Assembly: GCA_013334335.1 (NCBI GenBank)
Contig: JAAXXR010000013.1
Location: 1-43,528, forward strand
DNA from: Chlorobiaceae bacterium
GTDB taxonomy: Bacteria > Bacteroidota > Chlorobiia > Chlorobiales > Chlorobiaceae
Direction: 5' to 3'
DNA: 43,528 nucleotides
Positions 1 through 24,319 of the stretch are shown here, piece by piece. The notes below the pieces were generated by a model, which made no database searches, was not told where the DNA came from, and saw only the letters and a list, made by a program, of their open reading frames with translations. Positions within the stretch are counted from its first letter, which is position 1; each line of letters begins with the position of its first letter. Position numbers and translations under genes: made by a program.

Positions 1-613
1 TGGTTGGCCCGCAATGTTGCTGTGGCCACTTCCGTTTGTCCCGACGCGTGTATCGGCAGTTTCGTCACCGAACTTTGCCGGTTATCTGCCTTCAGACCTT
101 GCCTGCCTTTGAGCTCCTCTCCCTCTCTTGTCACGATCGTCGCTGTCGAGCCTGGCTTTTGTGAAGGCAGGTTTCTGTCGGTTCATTATTTCCGGTCGTA
201 TCCGGCAATCGAAAAGTCTCGGAATGAGAATTACCGCATTCCGGCCGGCAGTGCGGGATGAAACGCCTTTTATGTTATAGGGTATATAAAAGCTTGATTT
301 TAAATGATTTGAAATGATGTTTATGTGTTATTGGATGTTGGCATGAATCTTGCAAGTGTATTTGTGTGTAGAGACATAATCATGCAGGACGAGACGGGTT
401 TTGCACGGTCAGCCCGGTTCCTGTCAGGGGGCTTCTCCACAGAACAGATGGGGCGGCAAGGAGGTGAAAGCGTTCGTAACCTTAACGCACAGATCAGGTT
501 AAGGGATATCGACGTTGCTGTTGCCAGAGGTTTTCCCGCTCGCGAAGGCGGGAGCGTGTGGCACCTTGTCGGCATCCGGATCAGTACAACAGGTGAAAAA
601 TCTTTACCCCCAG
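1..613. other. Gene-free left edge with regulatory sites
   Basis: No convincing gene is seen here; short open frames have no recognisable domain. The stretch contains an inverted repeat at 220-226/237-243 (CGGAATG...CATTCCG), an AT-rich segment around 270-335 and a strong sigma-54 promoter at 338-354. The region after the promoter is most simply the untranslated leader of the activator gene that starts at 614. Confidence 0.6.
338..354 (+). promoter_or_regulatory. Sigma-54 (-24/-12) promoter of the activator gene
   Basis: TTGGCATGAATCTTGCA matches the RpoN consensus YTGGCACG-N4-TTGCW, with GG at 340-341 and GC at 352-353, the required 12 bases apart. Transcription should start near 365, giving a leader of about 250 bases before the start codon at 614. 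The inverted repeat at 220-243 lies about 100 bases upstream, where an activator site would be expected. Since the gene downstream is itself a sigma-54 activator, autoregulation is likely (inference). Confidence 0.8.
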
Positions 614-1957
614 ATGAAACAAGCATCCATAGTGATCGTTGGTGATCACCATTACAGAGGGCGTCGAAATTCGGTCAGTATCGAGCGGCCCGGACTGAAG
701 TTGACCTGGGTGGAAAAAATTGGCGATGCGGAATGCCTGGCCGAAAAGGATCGCGTTGACCTTATGCTTGTCGCCCTGAATGGCAGTTCCATTAACGACG
801 AGCTGTTGTCGTTGCGACGTTTTTTTGAACAGCACCGGCAGGTCCGGGTCATGTTCTTCAGCGGTGATCGTGAATTGAGTGCCACCCTTTCCGGTCTTGA
901 AGCACTTCATGCCGATCAGCTTGCCGGAATCGTCGCACCAGCTCCGGTTCAGGAACCTCAGCAGTCATCTGGTATCATTGCAGCTCGAGGCGAGGCGGTG
1001 TCGTCTACGGGTGTTGTCTCGGGTTGCTTCGGTTATGAAGGACTTGTTGGTGCATCACCTGAAATAAGGAAGCTCAAGAACCTTCTTTTGAAAATCGCAC
1101 CTACCGATACGACGGTCCTGCTTCAGGGAGAAAGCGGAACCGGCAAGGAGGTGATCGCCCGGGCGATTCACCATCACAGCTCCAGAAGCAATGAGGTGTT
1201 CATTCCGGTCGATTGTGCCGCAATCAGCGAAAACATCATTGAAAGCGAGCTTTTCGGCCACGCCAGGGGGGCGTTTACCGGAGCTGACCGGGCTACGCTC
1301 GGTCTGATCCGGTCGGCGGACAAGGGGACACTGTTCCTTGACGAAATAGGCGAGCTTCCCATGTCGATGCAGGTCAAACTGCTCAGGACACTCCAGGAGC
1401 GGGCGGTCAAACCGGTAGGGGAGACAAGGATTCATCCCGTCGATATCAGGATCGTCGCCGCAACAAACATCAACCTTGCCGAAGCGGTAAAGCAAGGGCG
1501 TTTCAGGCAGGACCTCTATTATCGTCTCAACGCGATCACCATCTATGCGCCGCCCTTGCGGGAGCGCATTCAGGATCTTCCATCGCTCTGTGACCATTTC
1601 TTGAAACAACTGGTGCAGGAGGGCTATCCAGAAAAGAGGATCTCAGCGGCAGCGATGGATCTGATGTGCATAAGCGAGTGGCCTGGTAATGTCCGCGAAC
1701 TGGAAAATGTACTCCGTCGTGCCGCAACCCTTGCCTCGGGTCCTGTCATCGGTCCTGAAAGCCTTGATATCGATTCGATCTCCTTCGGGAGGGTTTCGGA
1801 AGTTGACAGCGAGCGGCCAGCAAGTGTCGCGTTCCATGAAAAAGAGGCGATCCGTCAGGCGCTGAACAGGACTCGAGGTAACAGAAGGGCCGCGGCAGAG
1901 CTTCTGGACATCAGCGAAGCAACGCTGTACCGGCGCCTGAAAATCTACAGCCTGTAG
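614..1957 (+). CDS. Sigma-54-dependent activator with degenerate receiver domain
   Basis: Bacterial enhancer-binding protein of 447 residues that would open sigma-54 promoter complexes by ATP hydrolysis. Residues 1-110 look like a response-regulator fold, but the usual phosphorylated Asp position reads DLMLVALNG, so phosphorylation is unlikely. The AAA+ domain (about 140-385) has Walker A GESGTGKE (172-179), the sigma-54 contact loop GAFTGA (219-224) and Walker B LFLDE (240-244). A Fis-type helix-turn-helix closes the protein. The start at 614 was chosen because the fold begins there; the frame is open from 515 and no good ribosome site decides between them. Atypical receivers of this kind occur in FleQ/VpsR-like regulators of motility or exopolysaccharide. 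The adjacent glycosyltransferases fit such a role, but that is inference. Confidence 0.9.
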
Positions 1958-2304
1958 GACTGACCCATGAAGCAGACCCGTCCGCTGGCCATCGCCTTAT
2001 CCTGGTCCCCCTGCATTTGCGTTCCGAAATGAACGCGCTGTGTCGGACTGAGAGCGCCTCCACTTTGGTGCTCGCATTCTGACAGTCATGTTTCGCATCC
2101 GTCATCGTTCAGGTTGTCTCGAAATCTTTGCTGGCTGGATGTTTCAAGGGCTGTTCATGATTATGGCATTGTATTTGCAGGCTCAATGTGTGGCGCCGTC
2201 ACCTGTCGCGATGGCTGTTTGCAGAACCTCATGCACCTGCATATCGAGAGACGACGGAGAAAACACGGCAGAATGAACGACTATGCCGATCAACGGAGCA
2301 ACGA
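1958..2304. other. Intergenic region with sigma-54 promoter
   Basis: No gene is seen. It contains a short inverted repeat GCGTTC-N6-GAACGC at 2019-2036 and the sigma-54 promoter at 2163-2179. The repeat lies about 130 bases upstream of the promoter, a plausible position for an activator site. Confidence 0.5.
2163..2179 (+). promoter_or_regulatory. Sigma-54 (-24/-12) promoter of the GAF gene
   Basis: ATGGCATTGTATTTGCA has the GG (2165-2166) and GC (2177-2178) elements 12 bases apart and a full TTGCA -12 box. It points at the GAF-domain gene starting at 2305, with a leader of about 115 bases. Confidence 0.78.
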
Positions 2305-3411
2305 ATGAACGTACTCAACATGAACCCTGGTCAAGCCTCCGGGAACGGTTTCCTGAAGATGATGTCCGATATGTCGTCGCTGCCGTTGCAGAGCCGGGAT
2401 ACAGATATCGACGGTGTGGTCCGGGAGATTCTGGGGCTTATAGGTCGGTATCTTGGGGCCGACAGGAGTTATTTTTTTCAGCTGAGCAGCGACAGTCTCT
2501 TTATGGACAACACGCATGAGTGGTTCGCTGGCGGGGGGTTCGACGACCCGGAGCCGCCCAAAAGGATGTCGCTGGCCCAGTACCCCTTCTGGAGCGGGTA
2601 TATCATGAGAAACGAAACGCTGTGTATTCCTGATATCGATACCCTGCCTGATGCGGCAACTGCGGAAAAGGAGCTTCTGTCAAGGCACAATATCAGGTCT
2701 CTGGTTGCCCTGCCTTTGCTGGCCGAGGGGAGGGTGTTCGGATTCATTGGACTCTCGGCGATCAGGCACTTCATGGAGTGGGACCAGGAGAGCCAGCATA
2801 TGCTGAAGATGGCGGGAAACATCATCGTCAGTGCGATTCAGTGCAACCGTTCGGAGCGACTGCTCAACGAGGAGCATGATCTTGTCGAGAGCATCCTTGA
2901 GTCTGAATCCCTGAAAGAGGCTCTTGCCCATGGTCTCGATTCGGCACTCAGGATTTCGAACATGCGGGCCGGCGCGCTCTTTCTCGTTCAGCCACGGGAC
3001 GGTGGGATGGATCTCGTGGCGCACCAGGGCATCTCCGGATTGACCGTCGAGCAGGGGGAGCATGTACTGGCCGGAAGCGCCATCTGCAGGTTCCTGACAT
3101 CGCACCGTTCCATCTTCTTCGGCAGGACCGAGAAACCGATTGGCGAGAACCGGTTTTTTATTGATGAAAATCCGGAAAGCCTCGCGCTCATTCCCATACG
3201 GTTCAAGGATCAGTTTCTTGGCACGCTGCTGCTCTCCTCGTCAATGGCGAACGGGTTTCAGCACCATGTCAGGCGTCAGCTTGAATCTGTCGCCGTTCAT
3301 CTCGGTTTGGCGATCCACCTTGCAGAAAAGGGAGAAGAGGCCATCAGGACTCTCGAAGTCCAGCCACGAGGCGCCACGAGGCGTCCTCGCCGGCATCAAT
3401 CCTGTCCCTGA
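2305..3411 (+). CDS. Tandem GAF-domain protein
   Basis: Soluble protein of 368 residues with two GAF-type ligand or cofactor domains, at roughly 15-175 and 185-355. The first is clearer (GRYLGADRSYFF, later VALPLLAEGRVFGFIGL). No kinase, cyclase or DNA-binding domain follows, so it is probably a sensory or adaptor protein. The start at 2305 is supported by GGAG seven bases upstream; the frame is open further upstream without a ribosome site. A 10-bp direct duplication (3364-3373 and 3374-3383) lies in the last codons and changes the reading frame, so the terminal residues are probably not ancestral. The sigma-54 promoter upstream and the neighbouring activator suggest one regulon. Confidence 0.8.
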   Translation: MNVLNMNPGQASGNGFLKMMSDMSSLPLQSRDTDIDGVVREILGLIGRYLGADRSYFFQLSSDSLFMDNTHEWFAGGGFDDPEPPKRMSLAQYPFWSGYIMRNETLCIPDIDTLPDAATAEKELLSRHNIRSLVALPLLAEGRVFGFIGLSAIRHFMEWDQESQHMLKMAGNIIVSAIQCNRSERLLNEEHDLVESILESESLKEALAHGLDSALRISNMRAGALFLVQPRDGGMDLVAHQGISGLTVEQGEHVLAGSAICRFLTSHRSIFFGRTEKPIGENRFFIDENPESLALIPIRFKDQFLGTLLLSSSMANGFQHHVRRQLESVAVHLGLAIHLAEKGEEAIRTLEVQPRGATRRPRRHQSCP

Positions 3412-6738: not shown

Positions 6739-7368
6739 ATGACCATCCCTTGCAATCGTACATTCCTCTTTGTTCGGCGGCGTTATTTCGTATTCCTGAT
6801 GGCAGTGCTTGCGATTGCCGCGTCGTTCACACCGGCAATTGCCTTGCCTGTCTCGGGCCAGGGTGAAGATGAATTCGATGCATTGCGTACCGGCGACCTT
6901 TACGGCGGTGGAATCGTCGCGTTTATCCTGCAACCGGGCGACCCGGGCTACGTTACCGGCGAGTTGCACGGGCGGGTGATCTCCATCGAGGATCTTGGAG
7001 AGGAGGCCCCTTGGAGCGGGATTGCCGACAGACCGGCCTGTACCGCTACTGCGCTGGATACCGGGAGGGCCAACACCAGAAAGATCATGGACCAGTCCGG
7101 ACCTGGAGTTTCTGCGGCAAGGCTCTGCAGGGAGTACAGCGCCACCGTCGATTGTTCGACCTATGACGACTGGTACCTGCCGAGCATCGATGAACTTGAT
7201 CGGGTTTTTCGCAACCGTGCCGAACTCGTGAAGTTTGCCGACGGGTTTTACTGGAGCTCTTCCGAGCAGGATGCTCGTCAGGCATGGAGCATCAGCCTGC
7301 ATGACGGCCGGCGAACTCCGTCCTTCAAGGGTGGCAAGGCCTGGGTACGGGCGATGCGCTCGTTCTGA
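6739..7368 (+). CDS. Secreted DUF1566-domain protein (copy 1)
   Basis: A 209-residue exported protein. The N-terminus has a basic stretch (RRRYF) and a hydrophobic core ending near AIALP (about 14-37), a signal peptide. The mature part carries a DUF1566/Lcl C-terminal-type domain: GDLYGGGIVAFI, DDWYLPSIDEL, FYWSSSEQ and a terminal WVRAMRSF. The domain occurs in secreted and surface proteins, often in C-type-lectin-like contexts; its ligand here is unknown. Two cysteines in the insert (about 101 and 130-139) may form a disulphide. Start at 6739 is the first ATG before the signal peptide; an ATG at 6799 would cut the signal short. It is a paralogue of the protein at 9715-10239. Confidence 0.75.
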   Translation: MTIPCNRTFLFVRRRYFVFLMAVLAIAASFTPAIALPVSGQGEDEFDALRTGDLYGGGIVAFILQPGDPGYVTGELHGRVISIEDLGEEAPWSGIADRPACTATALDTGRANTRKIMDQSGPGVSAARLCREYSATVDCSTYDDWYLPSIDELDRVFRNRAELVKFADGFYWSSSEQDARQAWSISLHDGRRTPSFKGGKAWVRAMRSF

Positions 7369-10239: not shown

Positions 10240-10511
10240 GCTCGAACAGCACCTGCAGGTAACCGCCTTCATCAGCTGTTCCCTGGTGGATGCACGTCGG
10301 GTTTGAACGAGACGTGATGCGCCATGCAGGTGCTCTCTGCGACGGTGAGGTACTCCGACAGACAGGGAAGGTGATGGGAGCGTCGGTCATAGTTTCCAGA
10401 CGCATTTTTTTTCAGCTCGCACTACGGCGCCGTTACGGTTACCGGTGTTGATATCCGCGAAGGATCATCGACAGTGAGCTTTTTGAGTAACAACCTACGA
10501 ATGAATTGATC

Positions 10512-19199: not shown

Positions 19200-20540
19200 T
19201 CAGCGGATACCAAGTTGCTTGCGTTTTCGCCAGAGTGTCGCCTGATCTATGCCGAGGATCTCAGCGGCTTCCTGTAGCGAAGAGCTGTCGGCAATGACCT
19301 TGCGGATATGCTGCTCTTCGATTTTGTCGAGTGAAACCGGGTCTCCCAGCCTGGTCAGTGTGGTTGTTGACAACATCGTTTCCGGAAGCAGTTCAATATC
19401 GATCTCGTTGGCGTGCCCCAGAATGACGGCCCGTTCGATCACATTGCGGAGTTCCCTGATGTTTCCGGGCCAGGGATACTTCCGGAAGATGTTCAGCACC
19501 TCGTCGGAAAATCCGGAAACCGTCCTGTTGTTGCGGGCATTGAAAAACGACAACAGGTTTTCCGCCAATGGTACGATGTCGCTGGGCCGTTCAGCCAGTG
19601 ACGGCAGATCGATCTGCACGACGTTCAGGCGGTAAAAGAGATCTTCCCTGAATCTTCCCTCTCCGACAGCCTGCCGCAGGTTGCCGTTGGTCGCCGCGAT
19701 AATGCGGACGTCGGCTTTTCGGGTCGACTGCTCGCCGATACGTTCATACTCCCGCTCCTGGATGAAGCGCAACAGTTTTGGCTGGATCGAAAGCGGCAGT
19801 TCCCCGATTTCGTCGAGGAACAGGGTGCCACCTTCGCATGCCGCCACTTTGCCGGGATTATCCCGCATGGCACCGGTGAACGAACCTTTGGCGTGGCCGA
19901 AAAGCTCGCTTTCAAGCAGTTCCGGGCTGAGCGAGGGAGATGAAATGACCTGGAAGGGCTTGTTTGCCCGTGGACTCAGGTCGTGGATGATCCTGGCTAT
20001 CATGGTTTTACCGGTTCCACTCTGACCCTGGAGCAGGACGATGGCCTCGGTTGCCGCGACCTGTGCGGCGAGTTCGATGGTCCGTTGCATGGCCGGATCC
20101 CTGGACACGAGCGGTGGCTCGGACTGGAGCTCATCCGGATGGTGCCGGAGCAAAGCCGCACGTTTTTCCGTTTCACAGCGTTCGGCGGTCTGTTCGAGTA
20201 CCTGTTCAAGCCGTGAGGGGTTGAACGGTTTGGTGATATAGTCCGATGCTCCACGCTTCATGGCCAGCACCGCGGTATCGACCGATGCGTAGGCGGTGAT
20301 GACGACGATGTTCATCCATGGGGAGCTCTTCGCCAGCGCAGGTACCAGGTCAAGTCCGCTTTCCGTGCCGAGCCTGAGGTCCACGAGGGCAAGATCGAAT
20401 CTTCTCAGTCCGGCTTCTATGAGGGCGCTTTCGTAGCTGCCCGCACAGTGTACGCTGTGGTCCCGGGACTCCAGAAACGCCGTAAGGGTTTTTCTGATGT
20501 TTGCTTCGTCGTCGACGATCAGGATATTGAGTTTCGGCAT
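19200..20540 (-). CDS. NtrC-family (AlgB-like) response regulator
   Basis: A 446-residue sigma-54 activator. The receiver domain (1-120) has the acidic pair DDE and phosphorylated Asp54 (LALVDLRLG), with Lys in YITKPFNP. The AAA+ domain (about 140-375) has Walker A GQSGTGKT, the sigma-54 loop as GSFTGA (Ser for the usual Ala) and Walker B LFLDE. A Fis-type helix-turn-helix (about 405-446) ends the protein. It is first in a minus-strand unit of regulator, transporter and KinB-like kinase, so its kinase is probably that at 15061-16899. It diverges from the mgtA-like gene with about 195 bases between. Confidence 0.93.
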   Translation of the reverse strand: MPKLNILIVDDEANIRKTLTAFLESRDHSVHCAGSYESALIEAGLRRFDLALVDLRLGTESGLDLVPALAKSSPWMNIVVITAYASVDTAVLAMKRGASDYITKPFNPSRLEQVLEQTAERCETEKRAALLRHHPDELQSEPPLVSRDPAMQRTIELAAQVAATEAIVLLQGQSGTGKTMIARIIHDLSPRANKPFQVISSPSLSPELLESELFGHAKGSFTGAMRDNPGKVAACEGGTLFLDEIGELPLSIQPKLLRFIQEREYERIGEQSTRKADVRIIAATNGNLRQAVGEGRFREDLFYRLNVVQIDLPSLAERPSDIVPLAENLLSFFNARNNRTVSGFSDEVLNIFRKYPWPGNIRELRNVIERAVILGHANEIDIELLPETMLSTTTLTRLGDPVSLDKIEEQHIRKVIADSSSLQEAAEILGIDQATLWRKRKQLGIR

Positions 20541-23296: not shown

Positions 23297-23581
23297 AACA
23301 AGTGTTTTGCTGGTATGAGCCTGCTCTGGCGGTGCGAGCTGATGTTGGTCGATGATCGAGGGACTTGTCCTGAGCGTGAGGATTGGTTGACGATCGGGCG
23401 TCTGGACTGGTGGCTGTTCGATCGCAGGTTCTCGGGCTGTCTAATTGTGAAGCCCCGGTCTCAATGTGAGATGATTCGACATCTGGATGATGCCCGCCGG
23501 CAGGCCCCGTTAACCGGACGGAGCGCCTGAACCCTTTGTCGTTAATGGGGATATATAATGTGATGAATATGTGTGAATAGT

Positions 23582-23598
23582 TTGGCATATATTTTGCA
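23582..23598 (+). promoter_or_regulatory. Sigma-54 (-24/-12) promoter
   Basis: TTGGCATATATTTTGCA is a near-perfect RpoN promoter, with GG at 23584-23585 and GC at 23596-23597, 12 bases apart. Transcription should begin near 23609, two bases before the first hairpin. An inverted repeat at 23505-23550 lies just upstream and could bind an activator. Confidence 0.83.
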
Positions 23599-23608
23599 GT
23601 CATATCTC

Positions 23609-23745
23609 TATTGACGCCATGTCAAGCTGGTAAAAAAGCAGCGAATGGGGGGCAGGAAACTTCGGTGTGCAACCCCCGCCAGCCAGAGGAACCTGATACT
23701 CACCCGTTCCCCGGTGGGGACAGGTGAGCATCAGGTTCCGCAAAG
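23609..23745 (+). ncRNA. Candidate structured RNA (small RNA or mRNA leader)
   Basis: Three hairpins follow the predicted sigma-54 start. The first is TTGAC-GCCAT-GTCAA (23611-23625). The second pairs a G-run (near 23647-23651) with CCCCC (23673-23677). The third is long: GGAACCTGATACTCACC (23688-23704) with GGTGAGCATCAGGTTCC (23723-23739), 16 of 17 paired, capped by CCCC-GGT-GGGG. No uracil tract follows, so the RNA may read into the gene at 23828. Ends are estimates. I match it to no known RNA family with confidence. Confidence 0.55.
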
Positions 23746-23827
23746 CTTACCCGAACCTGGAGTTCAGTATTCCACATGGTCGATGTGATTTGTTTGGAAA
23801 GTTCCGTAAGAACCATGATGAGTTGTC

Positions 23828-24319
23828 ATGAAAGATCGATTTATGCATTCAATTCTCGATACGCCTGAAGTCAAGGATCTCCTCAGGCGGTTTGCACTCC
23901 GTAAGGTGCGTTATCTGGTGTTCGGGGGGTGTGCCGTCATGTGGTACTCCAGGCCCCGGTATACCTGGAACATCGATATCTGGACGGCTTCGGATCAGGA
24001 GAACGCCAGGGCCTTGTACAACGTACTGACGGAGGTCGGAGCACCGCTCTCGGGAATTTCATACGAGGATTTCCGCCAGCCGGGATTTTTTTACCAGATG
24101 GGCCGGCCGCAGCTGCGAATCGACGACATGCTGAGTCTTCGGGGGATCTCTTTCGAAGAGGCCTGGAATGAACGCGAGTCGATGATCATTGACGACATAG
24201 AGGTCAACTTTGTCAGCAGGAGGCATCTGATCGAGGCAAAACTTGCCGCTGGCCGTCCTCAGGACATCGTCGACGTGAAACATCTGGTTGACGGGGTGAC
24301 TGCAGAGAAACAGGCCTGA
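23828..24319 (+). CDS. Nucleotidyltransferase-fold protein (DUF6036/AbiEii-like)
   Basis: A 163-residue protein with the minimal nucleotidyltransferase signature: FGGCAVMWYSRPRYTWNIDIW (as FGGCAV at 32-37 and RYTWNIDIW at 44-52), RIDDML (97-102) and the terminal HLIEAKLAAGRPQDIVD. The family pattern is RxTxDID; here the first Asp is Asn48, while Asp50 and Asp99 are kept, so catalysis may be altered or lost. Relatives include the antitoxin or transferase halves of toxin-antitoxin and abortive-infection modules, but no partner gene is adjacent. An ATG at 23843 is an alternative start; neither has a strong ribosome site. The upstream sigma-54 promoter and structured RNA are likely part of its control. 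Confidence 0.78.
   Translation: MKDRFMHSILDTPEVKDLLRRFALRKVRYLVFGGCAVMWYSRPRYTWNIDIWTASDQENARALYNVLTEVGAPLSGISYEDFRQPGFFYQMGRPQLRIDDMLSLRGISFEEAWNERESMIIDDIEVNFVSRRHLIEAKLAAGRPQDIVDVKHLVDGVTAEKQA

What the first reader, a model, noticed from the sequence alone, without database searches (positions are those of the whole stretch)
23505..23827. Sigma-54 promoter driving a triple-hairpin RNA in front of a nucleotidyltransferase-fold gene
A near-consensus RpoN promoter (23582-23598) starts transcription two bases before a first hairpin (23611-23625). A G-run/C-run stem and a 52-base hairpin with 16 of 17 stem pairs (23688-23739) follow, all in a stretch with no gene. Sigma-54-driven structured RNAs are uncommon. 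The RNA either is a small regulatory RNA or controls the nucleotidyltransferase gene at 23828. An inverted repeat at 23505-23550 sits where an activator could bind.
Basis: partly seen in the sequence, partly recalled or inferred. Interest (0 to 1): 0.72.

Follow-up and report, generated by a model that had tools for sequence, protein, structure and literature searches.

The report
Sigma-54 promoter in Chlorobi-1 RNA regulon
In a green sulfur bacterium, the promoter next to a toxin-like gene carries the same kind of DNA enhancer that sits in front of a known small RNA of unknown function (Chlorobi-1), which gives that RNA a first regulatory context; the hairpin RNA that drew attention is most likely just the start of the gene's messenger RNA.

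Summary
The sigma-54 promoter (23583-23598) and the strong hairpin (23688-23739) are real. The promoter, not the hairpins, is conserved. In six related Chlorobiaceae genomes the same nucleotidyltransferase (DUF6036/AbiEii-like) gene is preceded by an enhancer site (TCTCANNNTGAGA, window 23459-23471) and a -24/-12 promoter about 104-126 nt further on. Four of the six carry a 47-aa membrane-protein gene between promoter and nucleotidyltransferase; the window and its nearest relative lack it, and their leaders share no hairpin sequence. So the RNA is most likely the 5' leader of the nucleotidyltransferase mRNA, not a conserved small RNA.

Elsewhere in the same genome the same enhancer plus a sigma-54 promoter precedes three tandem copies of Rfam Chlorobi-1 RNA (RF01696). 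Across the family, 43 of 57 Chlorobi-1 copies have a sigma-54 promoter at fixed spacing (controls 0.8%). A sigma-54 response regulator next to chlorosome gene csmH co-occurs with Chlorobi-1 (33 both, 4 and 3 one only, 46 neither; p=6e-16); the response regulator inside the window does not. The layout resembles LuxO-Qrr circuits. I found no report of it in the papers searched. No transcript data were available, and targets are unknown.

The parts
23440..23450 (+). upstream enhancer site A (TCTAATTGTGA), imperfect copy of the palindrome
   Evidence: conserved at this place in most relatives; about 19 bp before site B
23459..23471 (+). enhancer site B, TCTCAATGTGAGA (TCTCA-N3-TGAGA), inferred binding site of a sigma-54 activator
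   Evidence: half-sites kept in all six loci; same site before Chlorobi-1 in the same genome
   Evidence: sequence; not conserved in alignment A4
23583..23598 (+). sigma-54 -24/-12 promoter TGGCATATATTTTGCA; predicted start near 23609
   Evidence: TGGCA and TTGC invariant across relatives
23609..23827 (+). predicted 5' leader of the nucleotidyltransferase mRNA, about 219 nt, hairpins at 23611-23625 and 23688-23739
   Evidence: folding; not conserved in sequence
23643..23653 (+). GAATGGGGGGC, same spacing from promoter as the AATGGGGG loop of Chlorobi-1; probably coincidence, unexplained
   Evidence: whole-leader similarity not significant
23828..24319 (+). DUF6036 / AbiEii-like nucleotidyltransferase gene, 163 aa; active-site motif reads N-I-D instead of D-x-D
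   Evidence: Pfam 25.2 bits vs cutoff 23.6; PDB 8an4 E=4e-5
19200..20540 (-). NtrC-type sigma-54 response regulator nearby; considered as activator, not favoured
   Evidence: Pfam; no match in G004 and not associated with Chlorobi-1

Best explanation
The element is the control region of a sigma-54 transcription unit. An activator binds the TCTCANNNTGAGA-type sites (23440-23471), loops over about 110 bp and opens RNA polymerase-sigma54 at 23583-23598; transcription starts near 23609 and runs through a structured, lineage-specific leader into the nucleotidyltransferase gene. In relatives the same transcript first encodes a 47-aa membrane protein, which is missing here. The unit belongs to the same regulon as the tandem Chlorobi-1 small RNAs, which have the same enhancer and sigma-54 promoters. 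The most likely activator is the sigma-54 response regulator encoded beside csmH, near crtP-, bchC- and bchX-type genes. Shown by sequence: sites, spacing, conservation, co-occurrence, absence of the small gene. Inferred: start point, looping, identity of the activator, read-through into the gene.
For: Pattern enhancer-N90-120-promoter: among 86 family genomes found at the nucleotidyltransferase locus of all six genomes of this genus that carry the gene, at Chlorobi-1 of G000 and G006, at a divergent pair in G006, and only three more single hits; reversed control zero. Promoter, enhancer and gene in all six. Small membrane gene in four of six, dN below dS. Chlorobi-1 identity 60-66 bits. Sigma-54 score of at least 12 in 43 of 57 Chlorobi-1 copies versus 16 of 2040 control positions, half-site TGTCTCA in 18 of 34 upstream regions of the second genus. 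Regulator co-occurrence 33/4/3/46, p=6e-16, in both genera; the window's own regulator as control p=0.38. Two of the three exceptions (G036, G085) have Chlorobi-1 copies without the sigma-54 promoter.
Against: No transcript data. Co-occurrence counts genomes, not independent events. The regulator is present without Chlorobi-1 in four genomes. Not all Chlorobi-1 copies have a promoter or a clear enhancer of their own. A second Chlorobi-1-like RNA in the same genomes has no sigma-54 promoter. The window response regulator lies 3 kb from the promoter and could be the local activator.
Confidence: 0.68

Rival explanations
1. The transcript is a discrete small RNA that ends at or soon after the 52-nt hairpin (23739) and acts in trans or as a sponge; the nucleotidyltransferase gene has its own promoter.
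For: Strong fold; AATGGGGG at the spacing of the Chlorobi-1 loop; same enhancer as a real small RNA family.
Against: No U-run or terminator, hairpins not conserved in five relatives, no Rfam or model match, similarity to Chlorobi-1 not significant, no sigma-70-like promoter before the gene in the simple scan.
Confidence: 0.17
2. The activator is the response regulator of the window (19200-20540), a local two-component switch for the nucleotidyltransferase unit.
For: Near the gene in four of six genomes.
Against: No ortholog found in G004, which keeps enhancer, promoter and gene; no association with Chlorobi-1 (p=0.38); common in genomes that lack the enhancer.
Confidence: 0.2
3. The hairpin leader is a cis-regulatory element (attenuator or translational switch) of the nucleotidyltransferase gene.
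For: Stable leader of 219 nt before the gene.
Against: Leaders of relatives share no common fold or sequence beyond a 5'-proximal hairpin in most of them.
Confidence: 0.12

Closest known systems
Chlorobi-1 RNA (RF01696; Weinberg 2010, PMC2864571)
   Same: same genome, same enhancer motif, same type of promoter at a fixed distance
   Different: Chlorobi-1 has two stem-loops and an intrinsic terminator; the window RNA has neither that structure nor significant similarity
LuxO-Qrr small RNAs of Vibrio (own knowledge; see also PMC10162802)
   Same: sigma-54 response regulator, upstream enhancers, several copies of one small RNA
   Different: unrelated RNA sequence, other phylum, regulator encoded beside chlorosome genes, targets unknown; a resemblance in layout, not membership
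AbiEii / MenT-type nucleotidyltransferases (PDB 8an4)
   Same: sequence similarity over most of the protein, GG motif and second Asp kept
   Different: first Asp of D-x-D is Asn in the copies compared; no paired AbiEi-like antitoxin gene seen; partner in relatives is a 47-aa membrane protein

Membership tests
sigma-54 promoter | GG and GC dinucleotides 12 bp apart in TGGCAC-N5-TTGC context | tested here: met
sigma-54 promoter | upstream enhancer sites and conservation | tested here: met
sigma-54 promoter | rpoN-dependent transcript start | not testable with these tools
   needs RNA data
Chlorobi-1 RNA (window RNA) | match to the covariance model | tested here: not met
Chlorobi-1 RNA (window RNA) | two stem-loops followed by intrinsic terminator | tested here: not met
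Chlorobi-1 RNA (G000:C22 locus L070) | match above gathering score | tested here: met
   three copies, 59.9-66.2 bits vs 50
Qrr-type circuit | sigma-54 response regulator controls multi-copy small RNAs | tested here: inconclusive
   promoters and enhancers met, control by the regulator only inferred from co-occurrence
Qrr-type circuit | Qrr sequence core and quorum-sensing input | not tested
   the RNA is assigned to RF01696; no Qrr comparison beyond the Rfam scan
AbiEii/DUF6036 nucleotidyltransferase | Pfam score above cutoff | tested here: met
   25.2 vs 23.6 bits, relatives 25.7 and 28.1
AbiEii/DUF6036 nucleotidyltransferase | catalytic D-x-D pair | tested here: not met
   N-I-D in the window and four relatives

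The most novel reading that the evidence does not exclude
Green sulfur bacteria run a Qrr-like circuit: a chlorosome-linked sigma-54 response regulator drives tandem Chlorobi-1 RNAs that tune light-harvesting or membrane genes through their AAUGGGGG loop, and the nucleotidyltransferase leader with its own AAUGGGGGG and CCCCC runs is an RNA partner (target or sponge) in that circuit.
Probability: 0.15. Interest if true: 0.82.

Novelty: new variant of a known kind. Interest (0 to 1): 0.6.

Why it matters
Chlorobi-1 has been an Rfam family of unknown function since 2010. Sigma-54 promoters, an enhancer motif and a candidate activator beside chlorosome and bacteriochlorophyll genes make its function directly testable, and would be a sigma-54 multi-copy small RNA circuit in a phototrophic phylum with little known RNA regulation.

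Tried and rejected
DNA similarity of 23500-23830 in 60 relatives: no match at E<=0.001 outside the own genome. The best hit (exact 21-nt promoter copy in G012) precedes an unrelated gene and has no enhancer. The 18-nt hairpin matches in other genomes lie inside a protein-coding gene and look like chance. Window RNA as a diverged Chlorobi-1: rejected (p=0.38). Window response regulator as the Chlorobi-1 activator: not supported. Remnant of the 47-aa gene in the window: none. Defence-system match: none for the window gene. Other exact enhancer sites in the genome (C73, C94) have no sigma-54 promoter at the right distance. No paper on sigma-54 control of Chlorobi-1 found; the library lacks most subscription journals.

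Full report
Observation. The -24/-12 sequence TGGCATATATTTTGCA lies at 23583-23598 and hairpin 1 at 23611-23625. The large hairpin has arms 23688-23711 and 23716-23739, 21 of 24 paired, and the leader folds more stably than shuffles. No Rfam family matches. There is no U-run after the hairpin and no terminator before the gene.

Conservation. The host belongs to the Chlorobiaceae (record titles). Among 86 family genomes the nucleotidyltransferase gene occurs in six genomes of the window's genus and as a fragment in one of the other genus. In all six, an exact TCTCANNNTGAGA site is followed by a sigma-54 promoter about 104-126 nt downstream; in most of them a second, imperfect site lies about 20 bp upstream of the first. 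The combined pattern is almost confined to these loci, to Chlorobi-1 and to one divergent promoter pair in G006 beside an acyltransferase gene; the reversed control gave none. The three remaining single hits are about what I would expect by chance. The hairpins are not shared. Four of the six encode a 47-aa membrane protein between promoter and gene (alignment A3), with fewer amino-acid-changing than silent changes; in the window and G006 the interval is about 150 nt shorter and no remnant is found. This makes the hairpin RNA a lineage-specific leader.

Regulon. In the same genome, contig C22 carries the same enhancer 112 nt before TGGCATACATATTGCA, then three tandem stem-loop RNAs with intrinsic terminators. 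They are Chlorobi-1, RF01696. The second of the three copies has only a degenerate promoter. A model of them finds strong matches (E below 1e-9) in 36 of 86 genomes, in the loci inspected between the agmatine deiminase and malate dehydrogenase genes (gene names from sequence, own reading). Of 57 distinct copies, 43 have a sigma-54 score of at least 12, nearly all at 58-70 nt before the AATGGGGG loop, against 16 of 2040 random positions in the same loci. The start predicted from the promoter falls, in most copies of the second genus, on GAAA, the first bases of the Rfam model. Half-site TGTCTCA/TGAGACA is found in 18 of 34 upstream regions of the second genus. A related RNA at another locus in the same six genomes has no such promoter, so the promoter is a feature of the tandem locus.

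Activator. Of the sigma-54 activators in 15 genomes, one orthologous group is in every examined genome whose Chlorobi-1 copies have the sigma-54 promoter, and in none of those examined without. Over 86 genomes it is with Chlorobi-1 in 33, alone in 4, absent with Chlorobi-1 in 3, and both absent in 46 (p=6e-16; 6/0/0/15 within the window's genus). Two of those three exceptions have copies without the sigma-54 promoter and the third genome is 86% complete. The response regulator inside the window shows no such link (24/28/12/22, p=0.38). The favoured protein (L232:7460-8956, receiver + AAA + Fis domains) is encoded beside csmH, close to crtP-, bchC- and bchX-type genes. Genome counts are not independent events, so the p-value overstates certainty.

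Gene. The nucleotidyltransferase matches DUF6036 and a solved AbiEii/AbiGii toxin-family structure, 8an4, but has N-I-D where the catalytic D-x-D pair is expected. Whether it is active is open.

Judgement. The promoter is real with high probability (about 0.93), its membership in the Chlorobi-1 regulon likely (about 0.85), the csmH-linked regulator as activator plausible (about 0.65), and the leader reading more likely than a small RNA (about 0.7 against 0.17). These probabilities are my estimates.

Noticed in passing
L242-L247 (e.g. L242 about 3165-3242, - strand): A second Chlorobi-1-like RNA with loop CCGTGGGGGAACG, conserved in all six genomes of the genus that have Chlorobi-1, without a sigma-54 promoter.
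   Followed up: partly
window 339-2179: A second sigma-54 activator gene (515-1957, GAFTGA) is flanked by sigma-54-like sites at 339 and 2164.
   Followed up: no
L105 about 1195, L106 about 1171, L107 about 1172, L108 about 1216 (gene strand): Unannotated family of 47-aa proteins with one predicted hydrophobic span behind the sigma-54 promoter; no significant Pfam match.
   Followed up: partly
L157 about 7050-7190: In G006 one palindromic enhancer site is shared by two divergent sigma-54 promoters, one before an acyltransferase gene.
   Followed up: partly
L235 about 10340-10510: In G007 the enhancer and a sigma-54 promoter lie directly behind the csmH-linked regulator gene.
   Followed up: no
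window 23828-24319: Nucleotidyltransferase motif reads N-I-D instead of D-x-D in the window and four relatives; it may be inactive.
   Followed up: partly
window 23643-23653: AATGGGGG occurs at the same distance from the promoter as in Chlorobi-1, without overall similarity.
   Followed up: yes
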